DNA from: a virus
Virus record (IMG/VR): IMGVR_UViG_3300047445_000457
Location: 1-64,000 of that record
Reading direction: 5' to 3' (one strand)
Length of the DNA stretch: 64,000 nucleotides
The notes below the pieces were generated by a model. That model was given only the letters and a program-made list of their open reading frames with translations, had not been told where the DNA came from and made no database searches. Both the position numbers and the translations under genes were made by a program. Shown here piece after piece: positions 12,001 to 61,807 of the stretch. Every line of letters starts with the position of its first letter. Within the stretch, counting starts at the first letter, position 1.

Positions 12001-15000
12001 GTCCGCCGGCACGCGGGCGTTCTCGGCCCACTGCGCGACCGCCTGCGGCAGTTCCTTTGCGTCGAAGTCGGGCTCTCTCGTCTCTTCGGCCACCTGTCCG
12101 GCCATTTCGAGGCCGAGCGCCTCGGCCCGGTCTTCGATCAACTGCTCGGGAGTCTTGCCCTCGTTGCGCCAGGCTTCCGAGTTGCGCGAGGGTCGCGCCG
12201 GTTGCGCTTCGGCCGGCGACTCGGTTTTCGCCGTTGCCCCCTCCGCCGCCTCGGCGCTCGGGAACTCCGGCACCACCTTCAGCAGCTCGCGGATCGGCGC
12301 ATCGAAGCGGATCACGCGCACCGGCTCGTCCTGCTCGTACTTGGCCAGCCACTGGTGATGGCCGTCGAGCACGTAGTCGTCGCTCGATACCAGGATCGCG
12401 CGGTCGCCGCCCTGGAAGTCCTTGGCCCGCTCGACCTTGGCGATGGAAAACTCGCGCTGGGTCGGCTTGAGCGTGTCCGGCTCCACGATGTCCTGTTCGT
12501 GCGCGATCCCGCGCCCCAGCAGGAATTGCGTCAGTGCGCCGCGGTGCTCCGCCTTGATCTGCGGCATGTCGGCGCGTGGGATGCCCAGCGTGCCGGTCTC
12601 AGGCGCGAATGCGGTCCATTCCTTGTCGATCCGGTGGCCGGCGAGGTCGTTCACCGGCTCGGCCGCCTGGCGGCGCTTTGACGGCCCGGTGTAGTCGCGC
12701 ACCTGGGCCGGCACGGTGGTATCGCCCAACTGGTTGAGCAGGAACGCGCGGTGGTGGCCGTCCTGCAAGTGCAGCGAGCCGTCCGGCAGTTCCTGGGCCT
12801 GGATCGGATGGGCGGCGGTGAAGGCGCGCAGGCGTGCTTGTGCCGCCGGGTCCGCCTTGATGGCGTCGACCAGTTCGCGCATCCCGGTGCCGGCCGGCAG
12901 ATTCAGGCCCGCCGCGTGTTCGAGCACGTCGCGGACCTGGCTTTCAGTCACGCCCTGCGTGCCGATCGCGCCGTTCGGGCGGCGGATCTCGGACAAAGCC
13001 AGGTCGATGGTGTCGGCCGGGTGCGGTGCGGTTTCGTGCGCCGCGTTCAGTGCAGCCTGTCCGGCCTCGGCATCCACTGCAGCCACAGCGCCCGCAGTAC
13101 CGGGTTCGCCAGCGGCGACAGCGGCGCCGGGTTGCGCATCCTGCGCTCCAGCGGCGTGTCCGTGCCCACCTTCATCAGTTGCCGATACTGCATGATCTGC
13201 CCCCTCGGTAGCGCCGGGAACAGGCGCGACGGCTTTCCGCCCACCTTTTACGAATGCCTTGAACGCCTCCATCAGCGGCTTGCGCTGCCCGACCGGCACA
13301 CCAGCCTTGTTCAGCGCCTTCCAGAACTCGGTGCCGTCCTTCGCCTGCTGCGCCAGCGGCAGCAGTTCCGGCGGCAGCGCCGGCGCGGCGGCGGGCTGGC
13401 CCTTGGCCACGGGCGCGGCGGCGGGCTTGCGCTCGGGCACGGCGTCCACCAGCTCGTTCGGGGCGGCGTATTCAGCCTCGGGCACGGCAAAGGCGTGGGC
13501 CAGCGCGCTGTGCCGCTCGATGTGCCCGATTTCCTCCGGGGTCGGCGCCAGGTTCCGATACCCCTCGCGGCGCAGGCGGGCCGTGAACGCCGCCAGCTTC
13601 CTTTGCGGCGGGGCTTCGCCCAGCTCGTTCAGCACATGGTCGAGCAGGTCCATGCGCGCGTTGCGCGACTGCATCGCCTGGTGCGCCTCGACGCGGCCGT
13701 GGATGGCGTCGAGCTCAGCCTGGCGTTTCAGGTGTTGCATGCGCAGGTAGGCCTGCTGTTCGGCAGCGGCGGCTTGCTCCCGCTCGGCGGCGATGCGGGC
13801 GTCGTCCTCATGGATGCGGCGTTCCTCGGACGCCTCGATGGCAGGCTCCAGCAGGCGCAGCGCATCCTGTGGCGCGGCCTTGCGCGGCGCGAGCGCGGCT
13901 TTTTCCCTCTGCAACTGCTTGTATTCCGCTTCCTCGTCGGCGGTGTAGCGGCGCGCCGGGGCGTCCGGCCCGCCGCGCCCGATCGCGCGCAACTGCTCAA
14001 GGCGGGCGTCGATCTGGGCGATGCGTCCCTCCGCGGTCGGCGTTTCCGGCGGCGGGTCCTGCGCGGTCGCAGCGGCGTCAGTGGCCGCACCGGCAGGCGC
14101 AGCGCCGGCATCCGGCGCTGCCTGGTCGCCCGGCAGCGGCGTCGGCGGGGTCTTGTCGAAGCCGTTTGTGGCATCCACCTGGCGGCGCACCTCGGCTTGC
14201 TTTGCCGCACGCACGGCGGACGGGTCTTCGCTGCCGAATGCCGCCTCGGCATCGTCGCGGCGCTGCAGGCGCGCGGCGTCGGCCACGTTCGGGTCGAGTC
14301 CCGGCGACAGCGGCGGGGCAGCAGTCGCCGCCTGGCTGGTGGCGGCTGCGTGGTGCGCGCGTTCGAGCGGCCCGGCATCCGGCGACAGCGGCGGCGGCGC
14401 GGCAGGAGCGGCCGGCGCCGTAGCGGCGGGCTGGGTCGCCGGCTGATGCGTCGCCGCCGGCTGGTGATTACCATGGAACCCAGCCATGACCCCGCCCTGC
14501 ACGCCGCCCACCACCATCCCGCTGCCGGCGGCGTTGCCGACCCCCTTCATGCGGTCCGGCTCGCCCTCGGCCACGTTGGTGAAATACTGTTCCTGGGCCG
14601 ACTGCGGCGCTTCCTCCGCCACGCCTTCGCTGAAGGCTTCCTTGCCGATCTTGGCCAGCCGGCTGCCCTTCAAGGTATGCGCGCCGGTCGCCAGGTCGGT
14701 AGCGGCATCACCGAACACGCGGCCCGCTCCCAGCCCGATCCCGGCCGTGAGTGCGCCGGCGGTGAGCGCCGGCAGCGCGTAATCCGTGTAATCGCGCCCT
14801 TTACCTTGCGCCTGGTCCGCGATCTGGCCGGCGCTCTGCGCGCCCTCCATGCCCGAGCCGGTGGCCAGCAGGCGCGTCGAATTGGCCTCGACCGCGGCGT
14901 CAGCGGCGGCCTTGCCCGCCTTGGTCTTGAGCGCCGCCGCCGCCGCCTCGGCGCTGGACTTGCCGGCGTCGGTTGCGAGCTGCGCCGCCAGCTTGCCCTC

Positions 15001-15495: not shown

Positions 15496-15513
15496 GTTGG
15501 TCCTTGTCGTGGG

Positions 15514-17754
15514 TCAGAGCGGCATGCTGGCGGACTCGCCAGCGTTGGCGGCTTGCTCTTTCGCCTTGGCGTACAGTCGTGCGGCGGCCTTGCGGATGGC
15601 CGGGTTCGGGTTGGTCTTGGCGATTTCCTGGTACTTGGCCGGACCGTCCAGCGGGCCGATCAGCTTTTCCTGTACCCAGGTTTCCAGGGCGGCGTCCGTC
15701 ATGCCGGTTGCGGCCGGCGCTGCAGCGCGCGGGGGCGTCTGTGCCGCATTCTTTTGCGGCGCAGGACCCGTGCCGCCTTTCCCCTGGTGCGGGGTGGATC
15801 TGGCCGCCACCGTCTTGTACGCCGCCTGCACCTTGGCGGCGTAGTCCGGGTCCTCGGCGTAGCCGCCCGTCTTCAACGCTGCGCCGAACCTGGCTGCGTC
15901 CGCACCTGCGCCGACTGCGCCGGGGTACTTGCGGCGGATCAGGTCAACATACTGGTCCGCGAACTCATCGGGGCTGGCGAAGGCGCGGTACTTGTCCACG
16001 CTGCCGGTCTGGTTGTCGGTCGCCTCGACGCCCTCGCCGGAGAAGTCCTTGATGTTGCCGAGGTTATTCGTGCCGGGGACGATGGATTGGCCCCAGCCGG
16101 TTTCCAGACCCCAATGCCCCAGCACTACGCTCGGGTCGACCCCGAGCGCTTCGCCAGCGCGCTTGGCGGCGGCACCGTAGCTGTTGGCATAGTCCGCTTG
16201 CTGCGCGTTCGGCTGGGCATCGCCCTGCTGCGGCGTGGCGCGGATCGCATGTTTCAGGTACTCGGCGCGCAGGCGGCGCAGCTCGGCCACCGGGTCCAGC
16301 ATCTTCGGGTCGTTGGCCGCTTTCGGGTCCTTGGCGGCTTTGGCGACGTTAGCGGTGGCCAGCGCCTTGAGCTGGTTGTTCACGCCCACCGCCACCCCGG
16401 CGCCGCTCATGGCGTCGCCGCCGTGCTGGCGGGCGTAGTCGATGCCGACCGTCTTGGCGAAGGTGAAGCCGTCGCCGTCGTAGACTTCGTTGCCGTCCTG
16501 GTCCTTGGCCTTGGTCGTGGCCACCAGGTAGGCGTCGGCCTCCTTGGTCCAGTTCGCGGCCTGCTCGGCGCTCTGGGCCTGCTTTACCTTGAGCGCCTCT
16601 TCCTGCAGGCGGCGCTGCTCGCGCATGTTCTTGGCCTGGTCCTCGCGGTAGCCGGCATTCGTGTCGGCGTTCTTCCTCGCCGCTTCCACCATGCCGGTCT
16701 TGTAGTCCGTTTCGCTCTTGCGCTGGGCCGCCTTATCCATCACCTCGAGGCGATCTTTCAGTGCCATCGTCTGGAACTGGTTGAGCGAGGTGTCGATGTC
16801 GGTGCGGCTGCCGTCATTGTTGGCAATTTGCAGCTTCCAGGTCGGCACTTCCATACCGTTCGGCAGCGTGGTCGTGGCCTGCTGGGGCGTGCCGACGATG
16901 CGCCCGCGATTCTCTCCGAGGCCGTTGTACAGGGCCATGCCGCCCGCGAAATCGCCATGCGCAAACGCCTCCATGGCCTGCGTCACGCCCTCGGTGCGCA
17001 TCTTGTTCAGCAGCTCGCGGGTCTGCACGTAGGCCTGCGGATTGACGTCGCCGCGCTTGGCAGCGGAGTTCAGCATGGTCTCGTACATGCCCAGCATGCT
17101 GCGCATGTCGCGCGGCTTGGGGATGCCGGCCGGCTGCTGCACCAGTGGGGCGACGTCGCCGGATGCGGGTGCGGTTGGTGCCACCTGTGCGATTGGTGCC
17201 GCCTGCGCAATCGGTGCTGCCGGTGCCGCCTGTGCAATCGGTGCTGCCGGTGCGGCTGGCGCAGCCGTCATGTCCGGTGCGATCGCGCGCTGCGGCGGCG
17301 GGCCTTCCAGTCCATCGACCAGCGGCGTCGCCAGCTTGCTTGCGGTTGCCATCGGGGCCGGGGTAATGTCCGCTGCCGGATCGGCCACCGGCAAGGTCTG
17401 CGGACCGCCATCATCCGGCGCAGTGCCGCCTGCCGCCGGGGCGGAGGGCATTGCCGGGGCGGGCGCCGCTGCGGCACTCGGCGCAGCCGGCGTGCCGGCG
17501 GTCGGTGCGGTGGCGCCGCTTGCGGGCGGATCCTGCCAGTAGTCGGCGGCGGTCTTCTTATTAGCGTCGCGCACGCGGTCGGCCTCGCTCCACTCGTAGC
17601 GCTGGCGCGAACGCAGTTCGTCCTGGTAGGCGCGGTCGGCCTTCTTCGCCTCATCCTCCACGCGGCGGCGCTCGGTGTCTTCCTGGCGGCGCTGCTCGTC
17701 GCGGTAAGCGTTGTAGCCGGCGGCGGCGCCGGTCAAGTTGATTCCAAAACCCAT
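15514..17754 (-). CDS. Internal virion protein with FlgJ-like peptidoglycan hydrolase domain
   Basis: 746 aa. Charged coiled-coil start (about 15-75), then a long Pro/Ala linker with repeated AAPIAQ units (about 150-200), a second helical charged region (330-400), and near the C-terminus (about 535-660) a glucosaminidase/lysozyme-like domain with GHWGLETGWGQS, a likely catalytic Glu in LETGWG, and the TNNLGNIK motif known from FlgJ and GH73 enzymes. Probably an ejected protein that opens the cell wall locally during DNA entry. It sits between two small virion-type genes and the giant gene, 18 bases upstream of the latter, so one late transcript is expected. The domain call is strong; the virion location is inferred from position and size. 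Confidence 0.8.
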   Translation of the reverse strand: MGFGINLTGAAAGYNAYRDEQRRQEDTERRRVEDEAKKADRAYQDELRSRQRYEWSEADRVRDANKKTAADYWQDPPASGATAPTAGTPAAPSAAAAPAPAMPSAPAAGGTAPDDGGPQTLPVADPAADITPAPMATASKLATPLVDGLEGPPPQRAIAPDMTAAPAAPAAPIAQAAPAAPIAQAAPIAQVAPTAPASGDVAPLVQQPAGIPKPRDMRSMLGMYETMLNSAAKRGDVNPQAYVQTRELLNKMRTEGVTQAMEAFAHGDFAGGMALYNGLGENRGRIVGTPQQATTTLPNGMEVPTWKLQIANNDGSRTDIDTSLNQFQTMALKDRLEVMDKAAQRKSETDYKTGMVEAARKNADTNAGYREDQAKNMREQRRLQEEALKVKQAQSAEQAANWTKEADAYLVATTKAKDQDGNEVYDGDGFTFAKTVGIDYARQHGGDAMSGAGVAVGVNNQLKALATANVAKAAKDPKAANDPKMLDPVAELRRLRAEYLKHAIRATPQQGDAQPNAQQADYANSYGAAAKRAGEALGVDPSVVLGHWGLETGWGQSIVPGTNNLGNIKDFSGEGVEATDNQTGSVDKYRAFASPDEFADQYVDLIRRKYPGAVGAGADAARFGAALKTGGYAEDPDYAAKVQAAYKTVAARSTPHQGKGGTGPAPQKNAAQTPPRAAAPAATGMTDAALETWVQEKLIGPLDGPAKYQEIAKTNPNPAIRKAAARLYAKAKEQAANAGESASMPL

Positions 17755-17763
17755 GTTGCGCTC

Positions 17764-18021
17764 CTACTCCCCGGCTGGGGTGGTTGGGACTTCGAGGCGG
17801 GGCGACACCATGAACCTCACGGACTCGATGCGGCCGATCTCCATGGTCAACAGGCGCGCGCCCCGGTAGGCATCGGCGCGGCGCTCAAAGCGCTCGCGGC
17901 TGCGGTCAAGCAGGTGTTGCCCCTGCGCCGACAGGCGATCCAGCGTGCCGCCCTTCAAGGCACGATTCGGCATGCACCACAGGCGCATGAAACCTGCGCT
18001 TCCCGGCATGGCGGGGTCCAT
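17764..18021 (-). CDS. Small hypothetical virion-region protein
   Basis: 85 aa, starts by a TGATG overlap with the preceding gene's stop, so translation is probably coupled. Arg-rich (LLDRSRERFERRADAYRGAR) without membrane segment or signal. Not recognised. Its place between two ejection-type proteins suggests a structural or chaperone role, which is inference only. Confidence 0.65.
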   Translation of the reverse strand: MDPAMPGSAGFMRLWCMPNRALKGGTLDRLSAQGQHLLDRSRERFERRADAYRGARLLTMEIGRIESVRFMVSPRLEVPTTPAGE

Positions 18022-18734
18022 CAGGTGCCGATGCTCTCGCCGCTCGGCAGCGTATAACCGTCATTGCCACCGCTATACATATTCGCGTCGGTCATGCCGT
18101 TGCCGGACGAGGACGTGAACTTGCTCCAGTCGACCTTCGACAGTCCGCCGATCGCCGCGCCGGCGAGCTGGCCGGCCGCCGCGCCCTGCGCATTGGCCTG
18201 CTGCTGCTGGCTGTTCGCCACCGCATTCGCGGTGCTGGCCGCGTTGGCGAAGCCGGTCGAGGCGTTGGCCACCAGCCCCTTGCCCATGCCGAGCATGTCG
18301 AGCTGGTGGGCGTAGGCGCTGTCCTTGACCTGTTTTCTCGCCGTGTTCTGCGCGGTCGCGCCCATCGCGGCGCCGGACAGGGCCAGGTTCGTTTGCGCCG
18401 CCTGCGCGGCAGCCGACGACGGATCGAAACCGACCTGGCGCGACAGACGATCCTGCGCCTTGCCGATCTCGCTCGAGACGTTGGCCTGCGCCTCCGCGGC
18501 GGCGGCATTGCGCGCCTCGGGGGTGTCGTAGTTCTTGGCGTCCATCACCATCTGCGTTTCGAGCGGCTGGTAGTTGGCCTTGTAGCTGTCCCACTGGTCC
18601 TGCGCGATCCGGCCCTGGTAGGCGTTGGCTTCAAGCGCCGCCTTCTGGGACTCGGCGGCGTTTTTCGACGCCTTGTTCGACGCGACCCCACCGACCACCG
18701 CCGAAGTAACTGCTGCTGCTGCTGCCCATGGCAT
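18021..18734 (-). CDS. Ala-rich internal virion (ejection) protein, T7 gp14-like in character
   Basis: 237 aa. The N-terminus (MPWAAAAAVTSAVVGGVASN) is a short hydrophobic Ala/Gly segment followed by a long Ala/Gln-rich helical region with MGATAQNTARKQV and a Gly/Ser tail. Small internal virion proteins of T7-like and Bcep22-like podoviruses have this layout: one membrane-seeking helix then coiled coil. No direct family motif can be named. It heads the ejection-protein run (this gene, an 85-aa protein, the hydrolase, the giant protein) just downstream of the cupin gene, 1 base apart. Confidence 0.6.
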   Translation of the reverse strand: MPWAAAAAVTSAVVGGVASNKASKNAAESQKAALEANAYQGRIAQDQWDSYKANYQPLETQMVMDAKNYDTPEARNAAAAEAQANVSSEIGKAQDRLSRQVGFDPSSAAAQAAQTNLALSGAAMGATAQNTARKQVKDSAYAHQLDMLGMGKGLVANASTGFANAASTANAVANSQQQQANAQGAAAGQLAGAAIGGLSKVDWSKFTSSSGNGMTDANMYSGGNDGYTLPSGESIGT

Positions 18735-36760: not shown

Positions 36761-37076
36761 CCGGGTGCTCTTGGTTTGTGATCGGTTCCCCGAACAGGTC
36801 GGCTTGCCGGGTCGCCTCTGCGGCGTCCTGCTCTAGCTGGTAAAGCGACTTGGAGCGGTCGATGACGGTGTAGCGCACGACGCCCTTCTGGCGCAGGTCG
36901 CGCAGCACGCGGTCCGCAGACGCCGGCGCACAGCCTCCCTCCACCATGCCGTCGACATGGCGGCGCAGGTCGTCGGCGTGGAACGTGCGGCCTGCACGCT
37001 GGCGGCAATAGAGCAGGATCGCATCGGCAATCCGCGCCGACGTCGCTACCAGGTGGGCGGTATTCGGGTGGGTCAT
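36753..37076 (-). CDS. Small winged-helix DNA-binding protein
   Basis: 107 aa; ATGA overlap with the methyltransferase upstream. Pattern of a winged helix: ARIADAILLYCRQRAGRTF, then DLRRHVDGMVEGGCAPASAD and VLRDLRQKGVVRYTVID. Probably a regulator tied to the two methyltransferase genes; the operon ends right after it at a terminator. Target unknown. Confidence 0.65.
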   Translation of the reverse strand: MTHPNTAHLVATSARIADAILLYCRQRAGRTFHADDLRRHVDGMVEGGCAPASADRVLRDLRQKGVVRYTVIDRSKSLYQLEQDAAEATRQADLFGEPITNQEHPAR

Positions 37077-38389
37077 GCCTGCGCCTCCTTGAACAGGTCC
37101 AGTTGCGGCACCTCGGGCGGCGCCTGCCGGGCCACTTCGAGCACGCGCGCATGTTCGTGGGCGATGCGGCGCTGCGCGATCCCGATGTACTCGGGCGACA
37201 GTTCCGAGCCGATGAAGGCAAAGCCCTCGCGCATGCAGGCCTTGCCGGTGCTGCCCGATCCCGTGAACGGGTCGTAGACGGTGCCGCCGGGCGGCGTCAC
37301 CAGGCGCACCAGGTAGGCCATCAGGTCGGTGGGCTTGACGGTCGGGTGGAAATTCTGGCTGCTCTTGTCCGTGCCCTCGGCCTGGAACGAGCCGGGGTTC
37401 TGGGTGCCGCTCGACCATAACAGGGGCTTCTTGTCCAGATCCTCGCAGCCTTCGTTGCGGTCGGTGCGGGTCGCCTTCGGGCAGTAGAAGAACCGGGCCG
37501 CGCTGCCGCTGTCGCCCTGAAACGTGCTGCCTGCTTCGTCAACGTTGCCGGCGAAGGCGCCGTAGCTGTTGCGGAACTTGTCGGCCTTGCGTGTATGAAC
37601 CGGCGCCGCCGCCCCGGCATTGGCCGGGAACAGGGCGATCACTTCGGCGCTGCCGTCGTGGATCAGGTTGGCGGGCCAGCGTCCTTGCGCCGCACTGCCG
37701 CCTGGGCGCATGCTGGTCGCGCCAGTGTCGTCGGCTGAGCGCGTGCCGGCGTGGCCACGGTCGCCGGAACAGTTGCGCGCATAATCGTGATCCGTCACGC
37801 CAATTCGGCAAGCGTCGATGTTGAGTGCCCCGGTTCCGTAGGCGAGCAGGTTCGCAGAGACGGTGCCGACGAGCGCCTTGCGGGCCATCACCACCGGCTC
37901 ATGGGAAGGTTTCAGGGCGGTGCCCCAGCCCTCCCAGCGTGCCGCGTCATCACCCTGCAGGTCGTACTTGGCCACGTTGCGCGACTTGGGCATGCCTGAT
38001 CCGTAAACCCACATGAGCTGGTCGCGGATTTCAAAGCCCGCGTCCTCGATCGCGCAGGCCATGCGGTGGTAGGTGCGGCTCCCCGAGAACGCCAGCAGGT
38101 GCCCGCCCGGCTTCAGGATGCGCAGCGCTTCGGCCCACAGCTCGACGCTGAAGGCAATCTCGCCGCCATCCCATTTCATGCCCATGAAGCCGGTGCCGAT
38201 CCTCGCGCGCCCGTACGGGGTATCGAGGTTGACGGAGGCTTCCCCGCTGCCTCCCTTCTTCCCGGTCGTCAGGTGGTAGGGCGGATCGGTCACGATGGCA
38301 TCCACCGAGGCGTCCGGCATCGCGCGCATCACCTCGATGCAGTCGCCCAGGTGCAGCGTGTACGGCAGGTCGGTCTGCGGGTCGCTCAT
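37073..38389 (-). CDS. DNA N4/N6 methyltransferase (DPPY type)
   Basis: 438 aa. Catalytic motif IV is DPPYHLTT near residue 35, and the SAM-binding FxGxG appears late (DPFTGSGSTGKA), so the order is that of beta-class enzymes. HPTVKP before it is the usual beta-class helper motif. Modifies A-N6 or C-N4 in a specific sequence; which one cannot be read. No restriction endonuclease is adjacent, so the likely job is protection of phage DNA from host restriction. Overlaps the C5 methyltransferase by 4 bases. Confidence 0.88.
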   Translation of the reverse strand: MSDPQTDLPYTLHLGDCIEVMRAMPDASVDAIVTDPPYHLTTGKKGGSGEASVNLDTPYGRARIGTGFMGMKWDGGEIAFSVELWAEALRILKPGGHLLAFSGSRTYHRMACAIEDAGFEIRDQLMWVYGSGMPKSRNVAKYDLQGDDAARWEGWGTALKPSHEPVVMARKALVGTVSANLLAYGTGALNIDACRIGVTDHDYARNCSGDRGHAGTRSADDTGATSMRPGGSAAQGRWPANLIHDGSAEVIALFPANAGAAAPVHTRKADKFRNSYGAFAGNVDEAGSTFQGDSGSAARFFYCPKATRTDRNEGCEDLDKKPLLWSSGTQNPGSFQAEGTDKSSQNFHPTVKPTDLMAYLVRLVTPPGGTVYDPFTGSGSTGKACMREGFAFIGSELSPEYIGIAQRRIAHEHARVLEVARQAPPEVPQLDLFKEAQA

Positions 38390-40407
38390 GCCACCGCCAG
38401 GTCTTCACAAAGAACAAGACCGGCGCGTGGCCGGTCTTGGGTGTCTGCTGCGGGTGCCGGCATCGCCAGCACCGCCTCTATCCGCTCCCCTATCCAGCGC
38501 ATGTTGTTCACGCACATGGAATTGCCGAGCGCCTTGTAGCGCGGCCCGTCCGCCGCCGGCTTGCCCCGGTAGGTAATCAGGGTGTAGTCGTCGGGAAAGG
38601 CCTGCAGGCGTTCGCACTCGCGCGGGGTCAGGCGGCGCACCGCCATGCCGACCTGCGCGAATTGCTTCGGGTTCGTGCTTTCAAGTGTCGGGTGCAGGTC
38701 CCCGTGCCCAAATCCGCCGTGCGGCCCGTTGAACCGGCGCGGATCGTCAAAGCAGGCCGCTGCAACCACCTGGCTGCGCGTGACGTTGCCCGTGACGCAT
38801 ACGGCAGGAACCGCCGTCGACCCGTTGTTCTGCGCCTGTAGGGTCGGGGTGAAGTCGTCGGTGACGAAGATTCCGCCGGCCGCTTCGGATTGCCCCGGCT
38901 TGAACGCGAGGACGCCGTGAGCAATCGCGGGTATGCCCTGCCCCGGCTTGCCGCCACCAGTGGACAGCGCGCCCGTGCGGCTGCCGTCGCCGCCTTCCAG
39001 CCGCAACTCGCCGCGGCTGTTTTCCGCGAACGATACGGCGAACGGCTCGCCAATGCAGTTGTGCAGCCGGAACGTGGTGCCCTCATGGGTATAGGTCTTG
39101 GCCTCGTTCGCACTGATCGGGTCGGCCACCACGCCGTCCCCGGTGAAGATGGTCGGCGCGAGGATCAGCGTGTCCTGGTCGCCCTTGTCGGCATCTGCGG
39201 ACAGCGGCGGAGCCAGCTCGGACGGCGCGCCATCCTTGCCGCGGGTGTAGTGCGAGGCCTTGAAGCTGACCGCGATCTGCCCGCCGCCATTCGCATGACT
39301 GCCGCTGTAGCCCATGGCGCGCAGGGTCGGCGCGATCTCCACGCTGGCGTCAGCGCCGTGGTCCTTGCATGAGAAGGCCACCGCCTGCACCTCCGCGCGC
39401 GCCTCCAGCGTGTAGGCGATGGCTTCCTGCACGCCCACGCCGTCCGGGCCGCTGGTCGGGTTCTCGCGCAGCGCCCCGGCCTGGATCGCGTAGCTGATCG
39501 GTGCCAGCACATGCGGCCTGTCGCCGCCTGTCGCCGCGCGCAGGGCAACGGACAGGACATGCGGCGTGTTGTTCGGGCTGACTCCGTGCCCGCCCGACTG
39601 CAAGGCGTGTACCAGGTCGCCCGTGGACACCATGTTGCGGAAGTCAGCAGCTACAGGCTGGAGGTGCCCAGCTTGGGCATGGTCGACGTCGCAACCGCCG
39701 TCAGTGCTGCGTAGAGTGCCGGTGGCAGGATCTTGCCCCGCTTGTCGGCTCGGCGGAGTATGCCGCTGCACGCCTTCGAGCTCAAAAAGTACCTGGATGG
39801 GATCGAACCCCTCTCTAGAACTTGCGACAACGAAACAACGGCGGCGACGTTGGGCCACTCCGAAATATTGGGCGTCCGTGATCCGCCATGCGACCGCCCT
39901 TTCGGGTCCAAGCACACAACCAGCGTTTGCCCATTTGCCCCCTGGCGGGACGAGCGCATCATCTTCGCCGGCAAGTGCTCCCAAAAAGCACCCGAAGGCG
40001 TTGTCTTTAGTGCTGGTGACGCCGGGGACGTTTTCCCAGACGACGATGGCAGCGGGTTCTCCGCGAACAGCCCGAGTTGCATCAATTGCATTGGCAAGAT
40101 CCACAAAAGAGAGGGACAACTGCCCGCGCGCGTCATCCAGCGACTTGCGCAGGCCCGCGACCGAGAATGCCTGGCACGGCGTGCCGCCGACCAGCACATC
40201 CGGCGCAGCAACCTGGCCCGCGCGCACCATGGAGGCAATCTTCGTCATGTCGCCCAGGTTGGGCACGCCGGGGTAGTGGTGGGCGAGGACCGCCGCCGGG
40301 AAGGCCTCGATCTCCGCCAGCCACGCGGCGCGCCACCCGAGCGGATGCCATGCCACGCTGGCGGCCTCGATGCCGCTGCACACGCTGCCGAAGGTAAGAT
40401 CGCTCAT
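38386..40407 (-). CDS. DNA cytosine-5 methyltransferase with long target-recognition region
   Basis: 673 aa. All main C5 motifs present: I (FGSVCSGIEA, about 6), IV (GGTPCQAFS with catalytic Cys near 78), VI (WENVPGV), VIII (QRRRR, about 210), IX (RRLTPRECERLQAFPDDY, about 610) and X (YKALGNSMCVNNM). Between VIII and IX is an unusually long region of about 390 residues built of loose repeats of the form TL-x-x-x-x-G...V (TGTLRSTDGG, APTLRAMGYSG, TPTLQAQNNGS). ATGA overlap with the upstream regulator. Orphan methyltransferase, likely anti-restriction. Confidence 0.9.
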   Translation of the reverse strand: MSDLTFGSVCSGIEAASVAWHPLGWRAAWLAEIEAFPAAVLAHHYPGVPNLGDMTKIASMVRAGQVAAPDVLVGGTPCQAFSVAGLRKSLDDARGQLSLSFVDLANAIDATRAVRGEPAAIVVWENVPGVTSTKDNAFGCFLGALAGEDDALVPPGGKWANAGCVLGPERAVAWRITDAQYFGVAQRRRRCFVVASSREGFDPIQVLFELEGVQRHTPPSRQAGQDPATGTLRSTDGGCDVDHAQAGHLQPVAADFRNMVSTGDLVHALQSGGHGVSPNNTPHVLSVALRAATGGDRPHVLAPISYAIQAGALRENPTSGPDGVGVQEAIAYTLEARAEVQAVAFSCKDHGADASVEIAPTLRAMGYSGSHANGGGQIAVSFKASHYTRGKDGAPSELAPPLSADADKGDQDTLILAPTIFTGDGVVADPISANEAKTYTHEGTTFRLHNCIGEPFAVSFAENSRGELRLEGGDGSRTGALSTGGGKPGQGIPAIAHGVLAFKPGQSEAAGGIFVTDDFTPTLQAQNNGSTAVPAVCVTGNVTRSQVVAAACFDDPRRFNGPHGGFGHGDLHPTLESTNPKQFAQVGMAVRRLTPRECERLQAFPDDYTLITYRGKPAADGPRYKALGNSMCVNNMRWIGERIEAVLAMPAPAADTQDRPRAGLVLCEDLAVA

Positions 40408-40859
40408 GCGCTTGCCGGCGGCTGGGTCAGACCGAAGAAATGGGCCAGTACAGGGTCGGGGGCCGGAATGCACATGGACAGCGCGCCGGGATGGAATGAG
40501 CCGGTATCCAGGCGGTGGATCCTGTTCGGCTGCTTCGGCTTTTCCCGTAGTGCGGAGCCTGCCGCCACCGCGCGCAGATAGTCGTCCACGCGCTCCGTGT
40601 CGCGCACAAGGCGGAACATTGGATGGCCTGGCGAGCTGCGGGTGGCGTTCACGAAGCGATCGACCTCGATCACGCCATCCGCACGCAACATGAGGATGTA
40701 CTTGTTGACGCCGGACTCGCTCATGTCGATGACATTGCGGAGGTCCGCGCGCAGCATCGGGCCGTTGCGAAGTGCGCCGATGATGGCCGTCACGTTCTGG
40801 TCGCGGCGCCTGGTGTTGGCATTCGACCGGACGCGGCTGTTGGAAGGAACGAAGGACAT
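40404..40859 (-). CDS. Helix-turn-helix protein upstream of the methyltransferases
   Basis: 151 aa. Winged helix in residues 20-70 (VTAIIGALRNGPMLRADLRN, MSESGVNKYILMLRADGVI) with basic start. The C-terminus includes VDDYLRAVAAG. First gene of the modification block, overlapping the C5 enzyme gene; probably regulates it or sets DNA access. Partner to the helix-turn-helix gene at the other end of the block. Confidence 0.65.
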   Translation of the reverse strand: MSFVPSNSRVRSNANTRRRDQNVTAIIGALRNGPMLRADLRNVIDMSESGVNKYILMLRADGVIEVDRFVNATRSSPGHPMFRLVRDTERVDDYLRAVAAGSALREKPKQPNRIHRLDTGSFHPGALSMCIPAPDPVLAHFFGLTQPPASA

Positions 40860-50002: not shown

Positions 50003-50749
50003 TTACACCTGGGGCGGATCCACCTCATTGCCCGCATCGGCGGCGAGCTGGCGGGCGTAGCGCAGCGACACCGCAGGCAGCAAGGCGTCACCGGCAGCAG
50101 CCCGTTCCAGCACCTTGGCGACCCATGCGCGCTGGTCGCCTGGCTGGTCGCCGCTGCGCAGGATGCCCGAAGCGCCCAGCTCCTTCAGCATCCTGGCGGC
50201 GGCCTCACGCGAGGTGAACGCCTCGCCAGGTGCCGGCAGTGCGATATGCGCCTCGGGAATCGGCTCCCACGCGCCGCGCGCCATCTGCCGCTTGAGCGCC
50301 GCCAGCCAGCGCTCGCGCACCGACCCGTAAGCCTCCTGCATCAATTCCCGCCGCAACCCCGACGCCGCCCAATACACGGCCGGATGCGTCCACTCCCCCA
50401 TTTCGCCCTTGCCGCGTGCCTCGAGGCCCGCCACCGCTTCCTGATACGCGGCGATCGGGTCGACCTCGGGCTGGCACAGCGCGAGGAATTCCCCCCAGGT
50501 GGGCGGGAATTTCAGCCGCTCGCACGCAGCCAGGCCTCGCCGCAACTGCCCGCGCGTGATCCCGTTCGCCCTGATCCGTTCCAACCAGGTGCGCTTCATG
50601 TTCTCGATACCGGTGTCGACCCCGTTCTCGACATGCCCGCTGCGGTAGGCGTCAAGGAACTTGTTGCCGAACATGCCGTGCAACTCCCCGAACAGCGAGT
50701 CGATCCCGGCGTCAGTTGAGGTCGATGATGGTGGGGTCGTCACGCGCAT
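50003..50749 (-). CDS. Lambda P-like replication protein
   Basis: 248 aa; GGAGG 6 bases before ATG, overlapping the O-like gene by 38 bases. Signature segments of the P family: SLFGELHGMFGNKFLDAYRS, RTWLERIRANGITRGQLRRG, FPPTWGEFLALCQPEVDPIA and EWTHPAVYWAA. P proteins bring the host replicative helicase to the phage origin. Presence with an O-like partner indicates theta-type lytic replication. Confidence 0.85.
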   Translation of the reverse strand: MRVTTPPSSTSTDAGIDSLFGELHGMFGNKFLDAYRSGHVENGVDTGIENMKRTWLERIRANGITRGQLRRGLAACERLKFPPTWGEFLALCQPEVDPIAAYQEAVAGLEARGKGEMGEWTHPAVYWAASGLRRELMQEAYGSVRERWLAALKRQMARGAWEPIPEAHIALPAPGEAFTSREAAARMLKELGASGILRSGDQPGDQRAWVAKVLERAAAGDALLPAVSLRYARQLAADAGNEVDPPQV

Positions 50750-51737
50750 GATTGCCTCCGAGTCCGATGGATGCCGCCGCCGCTTTCCGCGAAGCGTCGC
50801 GCACGGCTGCCGCATTGGGTGAAGCGCGCAGCGGTGGCCGCACGGCGCCGCTGACCGCGATCGCCTGGCTCTCCGCCGCCCAGCGCTTGAGGACGCCAAT
50901 CACGTAGCCCACGCTGACCGCCTCGCCTGGCTTGCTGCGCTTGGCCTCTTCGCACGCGGCCCTGACAGTCTCCGGCGTGATGCCCTGCTCTGCCAGCACG
51001 ATCAGGTGGGGCTGGCTCGGGTTCGCGTTGATGCCGTACGGACGCATTGCGGCTGACAACTGCGCGGCGCTCACGCTCCCCCCCACCCCGTCTGGCGATT
51101 GCGTTGCTGGCGGCGGTGGTGGGTCTCCTGCTGCTGCTGTTGCTATTGCTGTTCCTGTTGCTGTTCCTGATTCGAGCAAGTCTTTCGGCAAGCCTTTTCC
51201 CGAAGCGTTCGGGGAAGGCTTAGGGGAAGGCTTACGGGGAGTCGCCGCGGAAGGGTCCGGGGTAGGCTCTGGCGGGGGCTTCGGCATCAGCTTCCCTCCC
51301 GTCACCTCGTCAAAGGCGTCCACGAAGGCTGGGCCGATCTCGGCCAGCGCGGCGCGGATTTCCACCAGCGCACTGCGTTTCAGCTCGCACTCGGGCAGCA
51401 GGTCGATCTCGACGCGCCAGTGCTTGACCACGTTGGGCGACTCGGGCTTGTTGTGCTTGATCGCATTCGGCAGCCAGATCAGCCTCGCGCGGAAATCGGC
51501 CTTCGCCATGCCGAGGGTTTCCAGTTCATGGAAGGCGCCCGTGAAAGCGTCCATCTCCCAATTCAGTTCCTCGGCCATCGCGGCGCGGCCGGCGCGGTAC
51601 AGGCCTGGGATCGGTCCCGTGTGCGGCCCGGTCAAGAGGAAGAACCACAGTGCCTGCCCGGATGGCATGAGCGGGGTCAGCGCGCGGAAAGCGTCATCGG
51701 ACCAGGTGCGTACTTCGATTTTTCGGTAGCGTGTCAT
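50712..51737 (-). CDS. O-like replication initiator
   Basis: 341 aa from MTRYRKIEV at 51737. N-terminal winged-helix region like phage replication proteins (TWSDDAFRALTPLMPSGQAL, FFLLTGPHTGPIPGLYRAGR), a long low-complexity Pro/Ser/Lys linker (about 155-240), and a C-terminal helical part (PETVRAACEEAKRSKPGEAV). Lambda O has the same order, with origin repeats often in the linker-coding DNA; a short GCTGTTGCTATTG-type repeat tract is visible at about 51130-51170. Confidence 0.75.
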   Translation of the reverse strand: MTRYRKIEVRTWSDDAFRALTPLMPSGQALWFFLLTGPHTGPIPGLYRAGRAAMAEELNWEMDAFTGAFHELETLGMAKADFRARLIWLPNAIKHNKPESPNVVKHWRVEIDLLPECELKRSALVEIRAALAEIGPAFVDAFDEVTGGKLMPKPPPEPTPDPSAATPRKPSPKPSPNASGKGLPKDLLESGTATGTAIATAAAGDPPPPPATQSPDGVGGSVSAAQLSAAMRPYGINANPSQPHLIVLAEQGITPETVRAACEEAKRSKPGEAVSVGYVIGVLKRWAAESQAIAVSGAVRPPLRASPNAAAVRDASRKAAAASIGLGGNHARDDPTIIDLN

Positions 51738-51803
51738 TTCGGGCTCAGCGTCGATAGTCTCTCGGTGTGCGGGCAGATCCATGGCAGGTCCGCGCCGCTC
51801 TTG

Positions 51804-57682: not shown

Positions 57683-58415
57683 CTTCCATTTTCGCTGCTC
57701 ATCGCTGGGCCTCATCATGACCGATCCGCTGTCGATCGAAGAACAGCACGTTACCGACGAAATCGCCGCGATCCAACGGAAGAAGACCCGTACCGACGAG
57801 GAAAAGGCACTGCTGCAGGCAGCGAAAGACAAAAGCCTGTCCGCCGGCGCCAAGACGTTCCTGGAAACGCTGGCCAAGGAATACGTGTACGGCTACCACG
57901 AGGTCGTTTCCACGAAATACATGGAAAAAGGGCTGATCGTGGAAGACCAGGCGATCCAGCTCTATAACTCGGTCTATTTCACCGACTACGTGAAAAACAC
58001 GGTCCGGCTGACGGACGAGCACATCACCGGCGAATGCGACATCATCGTGCCAGGCGTGAAGGGTATCGACATCAAATCCTCCTGGTCGAAACCCACGTTC
58101 CCGGCCACTGCCGAAGTCGGGGCAGACAAACTCTATGAGTGGCAGTGCCGCGGCTATATGAAGCTGTGGAACGTCCCCGAGTGGGAGGTGGCCTACTGCC
58201 TGGTCAACACGCCGGACGAGCTGATCCGGTATGAGCAGCCCGATCTGCACTACATGGACGATATTGACGAGGCGCTGCGGGTGACAGTCGTGCGCTACCA
58301 GCGCGACCTGGAACTGGAGGCCAAGATCGCCACCAAGGTGGAAGCGGCCCGCCGCTACCTGGACGAAGCGGTGGCCAGGATCTACCGGCAGCACAACATG
58401 CCAGCAGCGGCGTAG
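57675..58415 (+). CDS. YqaJ/lambda-exonuclease-type nuclease
   Basis: 246 aa. PD-(D/E)XK core: conserved Glu in MEKGLIVEDQAIQLYNS, then GECDIIVPGVKGIDIKSSWS giving D...D-x-K, and the helper helix YEWQCRGYMKLWN with Gln and Tyr typical of YqaJ. 5'-3' resection of double-stranded ends for single-strand annealing is the family role. Its 3' end is duplicated 1.15 kb downstream. Confidence 0.85.
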   Translation: MNNFHFRCSSLGLIMTDPLSIEEQHVTDEIAAIQRKKTRTDEEKALLQAAKDKSLSAGAKTFLETLAKEYVYGYHEVVSTKYMEKGLIVEDQAIQLYNSVYFTDYVKNTVRLTDEHITGECDIIVPGVKGIDIKSSWSKPTFPATAEVGADKLYEWQCRGYMKLWNVPEWEVAYCLVNTPDELIRYEQPDLHYMDDIDEALRVTVVRYQRDLELEAKIATKVEAARRYLDEAVARIYRQHNMPAAA

Positions 58416-58427
58416 GGCGTCGCCCTG

Positions 58428-58531
58428 CGGAAGCGTGGCTTCCGGGGGGGCGGAAATTCATTCCCAAATTTTCGCACTGCTTTTCCAGTTTTCGGAAAAG
58501 CGTTTCCGCAGGGGCGGAAATGGCGCTTCCG
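58428..58531. repeat. CGGAAR...YTTCCG dyad cluster, downstream side of the RepL-like gene
   Basis: Dyads at 58428-58444, 58493-58508 and 58515-58531 (CGGAA...TTCCG) plus an overlapping TTTTCC/GGAAAA dyad at 58481-58499 and a half site at 58451. G-runs follow as in the other cluster at 59265-59353. Probably protein-binding sites; hairpins could also end transcription between convergent genes. Confidence 0.75.
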
Positions 58532-58534
58532 GTG

Positions 58535-59176
58535 TCAGGTCCGCTTGCGCAGGGGTGCCGAGAAGCGTTCGATCTGCTTGACCGCCTCCTCCAGCTCGGA
58601 GTCGGCGGTCTTGGCGGGCAGGTCTGGTTCCATGCCGTCGATATGGGGCTGGCTCGGCGGATCCAGGCCCGGCCCGGTCGGCAACTGGCGTTCGTTGGAA
58701 AAGAGCAGCGGGATCTTGCGCAGGTCCGTGCGCTCGATGGTCATCCTGTCCTGGTCATCCCGGTCCGCGATCACCTGGGCCGAGAAGATCGAGAGGTGCA
58801 TCTTGTCCCGCGATTCGCCCCATGAGACCTGATCGTTGACTACATAGGCCATGACGGTGCCGGGACCATTCAGCTTCACGGTGCTGATCCATCGGTCTGC
58901 CACCAGCACCTGTACTGCCGTGCGGATTGTCCTGTCGGTGACGCCCATCATCTTGGCCAGCATTTTCTGGCCGACGACGACGGCGTTCCGCGGCCCCATG
59001 TGGGCCACCAGTAGGTGCAGCAGTGCGGCGGCGCGCGGTGCCTTCACCGACAGCAGCGCCCATGCTTCGTGCGCCTCGCGCTCAGTCATCACGAAGGTGG
59101 CAAAAGACGTGCCGGCCGGGGTGCCAAGTCTGGCAGGAACCAGCTTGTCGGATGGATTATCGGGAGATGTTTGCAT
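58535..59176 (-). CDS. RepL-like winged-helix replication/regulatory protein
   Basis: 213 aa from MQTSPDN at 59176; a longer reading back to 59449 runs through the repeat cluster and looks non-coding. Core: REAHEAWALLSVKAPRAAAL, LLVAHMGPRNAVVVGQKMLA then MMGVTDRTIRTAVQVLVADR and KLNGPGTVMAYVVNDQVSWG. This is a winged helix of the type seen in RepL-like plasmid initiators. It lies between two clusters of the same dyad, the natural binding sites for an autoregulated Rep protein. Function inferred. Confidence 0.65.
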   Translation of the reverse strand: MQTSPDNPSDKLVPARLGTPAGTSFATFVMTEREAHEAWALLSVKAPRAAALLHLLVAHMGPRNAVVVGQKMLAKMMGVTDRTIRTAVQVLVADRWISTVKLNGPGTVMAYVVNDQVSWGESRDKMHLSIFSAQVIADRDDQDRMTIERTDLRKIPLLFSNERQLPTGPGLDPPSQPHIDGMEPDLPAKTADSELEEAVKQIERFSAPLRKRT

Positions 59177-59264
59177 CTTTTCGGAAAGGGGGCACACAGA
59201 ACTTGCATGAGTATGCCGAGAATTGGCGTTAACTGCAATCAGGGATTGTTGCAATGGCCAGGTG

Positions 59265-59353
59265 CGGAAGCCGGGCTTCCGGGGGTGCGGAAATAGCTTG
59301 TTTCCGAGGGTGAAGAAACAAGCTGTTTCCGGGGGTGCGGAAGCCCTGCTTCC
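59265..59353. repeat. Four evenly spaced CGGAAR...YTTCCG dyads upstream of the RepL-like gene
   Basis: CGGAAGCCGGGCTTCCG (59265-59281), CGGAAA..TTTCCG (59288-59306), GAAACAAGCTGTTTC (59315-59329) and GGAAGCCCTGCTTCC (59339-59353). Centres are 24-25 bases apart, with GGGGGTG or GAGGGTG between. Regular phasing points to cooperative protein binding, either an operator or an origin. Confidence 0.8.
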
Positions 59354-59667
59354 TGGGGGTGGGGTGTAAGTGATTGATTTATCGAAAGTTCTTTTGCGGC
59401 TCTCTTGATCTCGGGCCGCGTGTCGCGCCGACTTCTCGATTCTTTGCAAGCTTTTAACTAACGCGCGCTGCGCGCTTGTTGCCGCACCGGTTTGCGCAGC
59501 AAACCGGCGCGGTGGGTGGAAGCGGTGGCCAGTATCTATCGGCAGAACAACATGATGCGCGTGGCATGACTCGGCGATTGTCCCGGCGGGTAGTTTCCGG
59601 CTATCATCGAATGGTTCACCGCCAAGTTAGCTACAGGATGATAAAGCAATCCACAAAGGAGACGCTT
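59354..59667 (+). other. Gap before the TrfA-like gene
   Basis: About 310 bases without a credible complete gene. Holds inverted repeats GCGCGCTGCGCGC and CCGGTTTGCGCAGCAAACCGG (59463-59508) and the exonuclease fragment. No clear promoter hexamers seen. Confidence 0.55.
59519..59569 (+). pseudogene. Duplicated 3' fragment of the exonuclease gene
   Basis: EAVASIYRQNNM then MRVA and stop; matches the exonuclease end EAVARIYRQHNM. The DNA match covers 59519-59554 versus 58365-58400 with few differences. No start or upstream homologue is present, so it is a remnant from duplication or recombination. Confidence 0.8.
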
Positions 59668-61399: not shown

Positions 61400-61807
61400 A
61401 TGACTAGCAATGTCGCGCGCCGTGGGGAGATCAACGAGTTGCGCAAGCAGCTTAAGGTCGATCTTTTCAACCTTGAAAAGAAATTTAAGGAAGAGTCCGT
61501 CGCGCTGGAGAAGAAGTGTCAGGCAGACATTTCCGCTCTCGAGCGTGAAATCAAGGAATGCGAAGCTCAGGAAGTGCGGGCGGCGCGAGAACAGATTCAA
61601 CAAATCATCGCGGCTACCGGGCTTGACCCTGCCGCCATCTTTGCAGGCCTGGCCGGGGCACGCGGCACCCAGGAAGCCCGCACCACCCGCAAACCAATGA
61701 GACCATCCACGGTCCAGCATACCGGCCCGAAAGGCCAAATCTGGAACGGGCGTGGTCGCACACCACAGTGGTTCAAGGAACGCCAAGTCGCTTCCAATGG
61801 CCACTAA
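61400..61807 (+). CDS. H-NS-like nucleoid protein
   Basis: 135 aa. N-terminal two thirds is a charged coiled coil (VDLFNLEKKFKEESVALEKK) for oligomerisation; the C-terminus holds the H-NS DNA-binding loop in the form GQIWNGRGRTPQWFKE (family core W-x-GRGR-x-P-x-W). Plasmid and phage H-NS proteins silence AT-rich DNA and lower the cost of carriage. It sits next to the only long AT-rich tract in the window. Confidence 0.88.
   Translation: MTSNVARRGEINELRKQLKVDLFNLEKKFKEESVALEKKCQADISALEREIKECEAQEVRAAREQIQQIIAATGLDPAAIFAGLAGARGTQEARTTRKPMRPSTVQHTGPKGQIWNGRGRTPQWFKERQVASNGH

What the first reader, a model, noticed from the sequence alone, without database searches (positions are those of the whole stretch)
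58428..59353. RepL-like gene bracketed by two clusters of the same phased dyad
CGGAAR...YTTCCG dyads occur at both ends of a winged-helix gene, four of them with 24-25-base phasing. This looks like a second replicon or an autoregulated Rep/operator module beside the TrfA-like one, which would make a dual-replicon phage-plasmid.
Basis: partly seen in the sequence, partly recalled or inferred. Interest (0 to 1): 0.72.

Follow-up and report, generated by a model that had tools for sequence, protein, structure and literature searches.

The report
Second plasmid origin inside a phage
A phage that already carries one plasmid-type replication start has gained a second, of the kind used in the cloning plasmid pBBR1, and the repeats on both sides of its gene look like the landing sites of the replication protein the gene encodes.

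Summary
All five CGGAAR…YTTCCG dyads of the 64-kb window lie at the two ends of the gene at 58535-59176(-), against 0.09 expected. The gene is not RepL proper. It encodes a pBBR1-type Rep, 58% identical to pBBR1's own. Homologues do carry equivalent dyads: 75 of 104 Rep loci have a pair phased 23-25 bp upstream of rep. Half-site sequence differs by lineage and tracks the Rep recognition helix: partial r 0.43 given the rest of the protein, 0 of 5000 permutations, and the best six of 162 protein windows lie at that helix. So the dyads are most likely Rep-binding iterons of a replication origin. A related phage contig has exonuclease and trfA adjacent with no rep. In the window the exonuclease 3' end is duplicated around a ~1.1-kb insert, so this is an acquired second replicon beside a TrfA one. 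The 3' dyad array is nearly unique to this phage (1 of 74); I read it as an inc-like copy-control array. Against: two forward motif scans written down beforehand failed (0 of 26), no partition genes were found, and replication itself is untested.

The parts
58535..59176 (-). rep: pBBR1-type replication initiator (213 aa)
   Evidence: 58% identity to pBBR1 Rep over 87%; sister of the phage contig L024 Rep, support 100/96; dN 0.28, dS 2.4 (saturated) against L024
59265..59353 (.). 5' dyad array: four CGGAAR/YTTCCG dyads phased 23-25 bp with CACCCC-type spacers (rep sense); proposed origin iterons
58428..58531 (.). 3' dyad array between the convergent rep and exonuclease genes; three perfect dyads and a degenerate one; proposed inc-like array
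59178..59188 (.). lone half-site (TTTCCG in rep sense) just 5' of the rep start codon; possible autoregulation site
59367..59380 (-). AAATCAATCACTTA box, conserved next to the dyads in homologues
   Evidence: TCAA-N2-5-TTR box in 41 of 72 loci, 2.6% in shuffles
59406..59411 (-). AGATCA box of the pBBR1-type origin
   Evidence: 53 of 70 loci, 3.2% in shuffles
59482..59512 (.). inverted repeat CCGGTTTGC/GCAAACCGG at the outer edge of the module, partly shared with L024
57675..58415 (+). phage exonuclease gene; its 3' end is the left border of the insert
   Evidence: phrog_5715 E=7e-60
58365..58400 (+). left copy of the exonuclease 3' end
   Evidence: 36-nt direct repeat, 92% identical to 59519-59554
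59519..59554 (+). right, remnant copy of the exonuclease 3' end; continues into sequence shared with the rep-less relative L005
59668..60729 (+). trfA-like initiator gene of the first replicon
   Evidence: PF07042 E=3e-17; 83% identical in L005
60617..60745 (+). TrfA-type iterons CTAAAAACGACAC, mostly ~21 bp apart; matching layout in L005

Best explanation
The stretch ~58416-59515 is a complete pBBR1-type replicon acquired by a temperate, probably extrachromosomal phage that already had a TrfA-type replicon. Rep dimers bind the CGGAAR half-sites through the recognition helix TDRTIRTA (inferred from covariation). The 5' array next to the AGATCA and AAATCA boxes is the origin. Binding there starts replication and, with the half-site at the start codon, probably represses rep (inferred). 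The extra 3' array is proposed to titrate Rep or pair with the 5' array and so lower copy number, as inc arrays do in P1 and F. The module came in by recombination at the 3' end of the exonuclease gene, leaving a remnant of that end on its far side.
For: Rep identity. Dyads above chance. Same architecture with different letters in homologues: 75 of 104 loci, 60 of 96 against 2 of 1920 shuffles with a stricter rule. Half-site tracks the recognition helix. For the window's helix class, 11 of 11 loci have CGGAAR dyads against 2 of 91 others (classes set). Sister Reps L093 and L048 (support 100/96) differ in helix and half-site together. A scan of viral contigs with TTCCGCACCCCCGGAAR gave 9 contigs, each with the motif in or beside an initiator-like winged-helix gene, 7 of 9 with a [TS]DR[ST][VI]R helix. 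Origin boxes. Rep-less relative with both flanks adjacent. The nearest Rep sits in another phage contig (tape measure, endolysin) beside ParA. No integrase or resolvase in the record.
Against: My two written-down forward scans failed: 0 of 23 contigs with GTCCGCACCCCCGGAC and 0 of 3 with GACGCACCCCTGCGTC have an initiator within 700 bp. 29 of 104 loci gave no phased pair in the blind scan, the FLC5 phage homologue among them. No ParA or ParB_N was found. No sigma-70 match upstream of rep on its strand. L024 has only a degenerate 3' array, and only 1 of 74 loci has 3' dyads of its own half-site, so the inc reading rests on one genome. Replication, binding and copy number are untested.
Confidence: 0.72

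Rival explanations
1. The module is an incompatibility weapon rather than a working replicon: Rep plus two arrays disturb resident pBBR1-type plasmids while the phage lives on TrfA.
For: A TrfA replicon with conserved iterons is already present; the 3' array adds Rep sites that 73 of 74 homologues lack.
Against: The full origin, boxes included, is kept, and the nearest relative appears to use the same module with ParA and no TrfA match in its contig.
Confidence: 0.12
2. The 3' array is mainly a boundary or two-way transcription terminator between the convergent rep and exonuclease genes; only the 5' array has to do with Rep.
For: It lies between convergent genes; a terminator-like site is called on the + strand at 58450-58475.
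Against: Its dyads have the same CGGAAR half-sites and C-tract spacers as the 5' array; shuffles give 1.4 terminator-like sites per region, against 3 found.
Confidence: 0.2
3. A decaying relic of a past insertion with no present function.
For: The exonuclease remnant on the right shows that the insertion is not fresh (copies 92% identical); no partition genes found.
Against: The rep frame is intact and constrained against L024 (dN 0.28, dS 2.4 and saturated); the arrays are well kept.
Confidence: 0.1
4. An assembly chimera joined a plasmid or another phage to this one.
For: The record comes from a public virus collection and was not checked with reads.
Against: Both flanks of the insert are adjacent and in the same order in L005; two diverged copies of the exonuclease end remain, which a misjoin at a repeat would not leave.
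Confidence: 0.05

Closest known systems
pBBR1 (Bordetella bronchiseptica plasmid, NC_025015) and its Rep
   Same: Rep homologous over 87% of its length; two dyads 25 bp apart upstream of rep with C-tract spacers and a TCAA...TTA box.
   Different: Half-site CGCAAC/T instead of CGGAAR; two dyads, not four; no 3' array found; a 2.7-kb plasmid, not a phage.
Small Paracoccus plasmids pAES7, pMARC3, pMOS2 (PMC3832669, section 12 read)
   Same: Two iteron-like repeats upstream of rep, overlapped by inverted repeats in pMOS2; a partial inverted iteron over the rep start in pAES7; Rep related to pSx-Qyy Rep, which is a homologue here.
   Different: That section describes neither a helix/half-site relation nor a 3' array.
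P1 and mini-F ori-rep-inc arrangement (recalled)
   Same: An initiator gene bracketed by two arrays of its own binding sites.
   Different: Different Rep family; inc function is not shown here.
Phage contig IMGVR_UViG_3300047318_000332 (L024)
   Same: Rep 66% identical, three CGGAA dyads upstream, repeats 3' of rep, an H-NS-like gene next.
   Different: ParA beside rep; no TrfA match; 3' repeats degenerate.
Lambda-O-like phage initiators (L115-L118, L120; O-like profiles matched for L116 and L117)
   Same: Winged helix with a similar recognition helix; CGGAA dyads with G-tract spacers.
   Different: Dyads lie inside the initiator gene; a different protein family outside the winged helix.

Membership tests
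pBBR1-type replicon | Rep homologous to pBBR1 Rep | tested here: met
   58.4% identity over 87%, E=8e-57; tree
pBBR1-type replicon | phased dyads 24-25 bp apart upstream of rep | tested here: met
   window and 74 other loci of 104; feature defined here
pBBR1-type replicon | autonomous replication from rep plus origin | not testable with these tools
   needs cloning
RepL (PF05732) | match above Pfam's cut-off | tested here: not met
   no PF05732 match at E<=1 for the window protein; pBBR1 Rep 14.8 bits against 20.3
TrfA-type iteron replicon (neighbouring module) | TrfA protein and iterons | tested here: met
   PF07042 62.9 bits against 22; iterons with matching layout in L005
phage-plasmid | phage particle and packaging genes | tested here: met
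   terminase, portal/adaptor, major head, internal virion protein
phage-plasmid | plasmid replication initiator | tested here: met
   two: pBBR1-type Rep and TrfA-like
phage-plasmid | partition system | tested here: inconclusive
   no AAA_31, CbiA or ParB_N in the 70226-base record; other partition types not sought
phage-plasmid | extrachromosomal lysogen | not testable with these tools
   no integrase or resolvase found and a repressor-like gene present, which fits but does not show it
ori-rep-inc arrangement as in P1/F | initiator-binding arrays on both sides of rep | tested here: inconclusive
   same dyads on both sides; that Rep binds them is inferred
ori-rep-inc arrangement as in P1/F | the distal array lowers copy number | not testable with these tools
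   needs deletion and copy-number assay

The most novel reading that the evidence does not exclude
pBBR1-type plasmid initiators and lambda-O-like phage initiators share one modular origin language: a recognition helix paired with a half-site, set in G-tract-spaced dyads. Swapping the helix and the half-site together creates new incompatibility groups, and such ~1-kb replicon cassettes move between plasmids and phages. This phage adds a second array that turns a multicopy cassette into a low-copy one.
Probability: 0.33. Interest if true: 0.82.

Novelty: new variant of a known kind. Interest (0 to 1): 0.62.

Why it matters
pBBR1 vectors are used very widely, yet the papers that I could search describe the origin of this family only piecemeal. 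The helix/half-site relation gives a testable map of Rep-binding sites and of which replicons should exclude each other. The phage shows a natural dual replicon with a readable insertion scar, and suggests how a multicopy cassette could be adapted to a 70-kb phage.

Tried and rejected
RepL membership: rejected. Rep as a direct relative of a solved initiator: a profile search of PDB sequences gave only weak transcription-factor hits (best E=0.08). The fold comparison gave common winged helices, Z 9.2 and below; among them 'Structure of initiator' 4pt7 (Z 7.8, rmsd 5.5, 88 aligned) is not distinctive.

Terminator reading of the dyads: not favoured, kept as a rival for the 3' array. Chance: rejected. 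A first count of 3' repeats by shared 6-mers was crude and was replaced. A first pattern for the AT-rich box was wrongly written and found 1 of 70; corrected.

Forward scans with two other half-sites, predictions written before in note: failed, 0 of 23 and 0 of 3 contigs with an initiator within 700 bp. A lone 16-base palindrome therefore does not point to an initiator. In the earlier 9-contig scan there was no written prediction. Ten further plasmids were fetched as a hold-out (L123-L132): 3 have a helix that fits a class (L123, L125, L132) and all 3 show that class's half-site, but they are close kin of loci already seen. L124 has only 87 bases of upstream, with a TAGTCCC half-site. New helices with new half-sites are L128, L129, L130 and L131. 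L126 and L127 resemble earlier loci. These ten are not in the counts.

Background rate of [TS]DR[ST][VI]R helices among lambda-O-like proteins was not measured, so 7 of 9 has no formal control. Fisher values use classes set after seeing the data and related rows.

Full report
WHAT IS THERE. The window is the first 64000 bases of a 70226-base IMG/VR virus record. The gene at 58535-59176(-) encodes 213 aa. All five exact CGGAAR-N2-8-YTTCCG dyads of the window lie within 58428-59306, against 0.09 expected in dinucleotide shuffles (0 of 100 reach five). With imperfect arms, six of the seven sites of the window are here. Upstream of rep are four dyads 23-25 bp apart separated by CACCCC-type spacers; downstream are three dyads and a degenerate one, about 22 and 42 bp apart.

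WHAT THE GENE IS. tblastn finds 192 of 72,556 plasmid records with a homologue. Among the best is pBBR1 itself (58.4% identity over 87% of the protein, E=8e-57), together with small plasmids of E. coli, Klebsiella and Citrobacter. In 50,697 phage records only two, both Burkholderia phage FLC5, match, at 34%. Pfam gives only sub-threshold helix-turn-helix matches. RepL is not met for this protein; FLC5's distant homologue does pass RepL's cut-off. The AlphaFold model is confident only in the winged helix.

HOMOLOGUES HAVE THE DYADS. I examined 104 Rep loci: the window, 8 viral contigs, 80 genome contigs (of 114 confirmed, the best 80 kept) and 15 fetched plasmid or phage loci. A strict rule found a phased pair sharing a 5-nt arm in 60 of the 96 with enough upstream sequence, against 2 of 1920 mononucleotide shuffles. 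A looser blind scan found one in 75 of 104. The letters differ between lineages (pBBR1 CGCAA, E. coli pMB3176_3 CGGACAC, Paracoccus TGCGTCA, Sphingobium TGTGACTCC), while the architecture stays: two dyads 24-25 bp apart, G or C tracts between, about 100-270 bp before rep. The AGATCA box lies 5' of the dyads in 53 of 70 loci (3.2% in shuffles) and a TCAA...TTR box in 41 of 72 (2.6%); the window has both.

THE HALF-SITE FOLLOWS THE RECOGNITION HELIX. Among 45 non-redundant loci of the 75, helix similarity predicts half-site similarity after removing the similarity of the rest of Rep (partial r=0.43, 0 of 5000 permutations). Of 162 nine-residue windows of the protein, the best six all lie at this helix. 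By class, [TS]DR[ST][VI]R[TN]A goes with CGGAAR in 11 of 11 loci and 2 of 91 others have such a dyad (classes were set). L093 and L048 are sisters (100/96) yet differ in helix and half-site together, and L093 resembles the distant window in both. This is the main reason to say that Rep binds the dyads. It is inference from covariation, not a binding test.

A MOTIF SCAN AND ITS LIMITS. Scanning viral contigs for TTCCGCACCCCCGGAAR gave 9 contigs. In three the motif lies at a pBBR1-type rep (L114, L119, and L122, which is the L024 contig). In six it lies inside a winged-helix initiator-like gene (L115-L118, L120, L121; O-like profiles matched for the two tested, L116 and L117). Seven of nine have a [TS]DR[ST][VI]R helix; L116 has TARTIR and L121 SERALR. 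I then wrote down predictions for two other half-sites. Both failed: 0 of 23 and 0 of 3 contigs have an initiator within 700 bp. A single short palindrome is thus not diagnostic, and the extension to lambda-O-like initiators remains a lead.

INSERTION INTO A TRFA PHAGE. In L005/L006 (IMGVR_UViG_3300046457_000390) the exonuclease (88%) is followed directly by trfA (83%), with no rep match anywhere in the 43.6-kb contig. The window flanks align to it on both sides and overlap by about 20 bases. In the window the last 36 bases of exonuclease homology are present twice, at 58365-58400 and 59519-59554, 92% identical, and the right copy continues into L005-like sequence. The replicon therefore most likely entered at the exonuclease 3' end. 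The trfA iterons have a matching layout in L005. The window has phage head, portal, terminase and internal virion genes and a repressor-like gene, but no integrase, resolvase, AAA_31, CbiA or ParB_N match in the whole record.

THE SAME REPLICON IN OTHER PHAGES. The nearest Rep, L024 (sister, 100/96), lies in a contig with tape measure, head-tail adaptor, endolysin, and ParA beside rep. It has the same upstream dyads and degenerate repeats 3' of rep. All eight Rep-bearing viral loci L024-L031 have at least one phage structural or packaging match, L030's being weak. On the tree the label 'viral' needs at least seven changes, so phages have probably taken up such replicons repeatedly; the collection is selected for viruses.

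THE 3' ARRAY. Of 74 loci with a known half-site and enough downstream sequence, only the window has dyads of its own half-site within 300 bp 3' of rep. P1 and mini-F (recalled) bracket their rep genes with arrays, the distal one controlling copy number. In PMC6090056 (passages seen) extra initiator sites beside an origin lower copy number by titration and handcuffing. By analogy I propose an inc-like role; the rivals are a terminator or boundary element and an incompatibility weapon.

LITERATURE. PMC3832669 (passages and section 12 read) reports two iteron-like repeats upstream of related Paracoccus reps. PMC5304414, PMC10879196, PMC11652158 and PMC6312765 were seen as passages. Searches listed no paper that from its title or abstract describes a pBBR1-type replicon in a phage-plasmid or a helix/half-site relation for this family; only the open-licence PMC library was searched.

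Noticed in passing
L115-L118, L120, L121 (IMG/VR contigs): Winged-helix phage initiator-like genes (lambda-O-like profiles matched for L116 and L117) carry CGGAA...TTCCG dyads with G-tract spacers inside the gene, and most have a recognition helix like the window Rep.
   Followed up: partly
window 61400-61804; L005:7719-8144; L024:5924-6262: A small H-NS-like gene (sub-threshold Pfam match in window and L024; by eye in L005) sits near the replicon in all three phages.
   Followed up: partly
window 1372-18057: Four very long ORFs on the + strand (1741, 515, 1498, 1768 aa) without any PHROG match, opposite to the strand of the identified phage structural genes.
   Followed up: no
window 37076-40473: Two adjacent DNA methyltransferase-like genes in the phage.
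   Followed up: no
window 50006-51782: Lambda-P-like and DnaD-like helicase-loader genes, i.e. possibly a third, lytic-type replication module.
   Followed up: no
L022 (Pseudomonas savastanoi plasmid NZ_CP032457): A pBBR1-type Rep next to a RepA gene on a 112-kb plasmid: another possible dual replicon.
   Followed up: no
window 59482-59512 and L024:4704-4727: A partly shared inverted repeat around TTTGCGCAGCAAA at the outer edge of both modules; role unknown.
   Followed up: no
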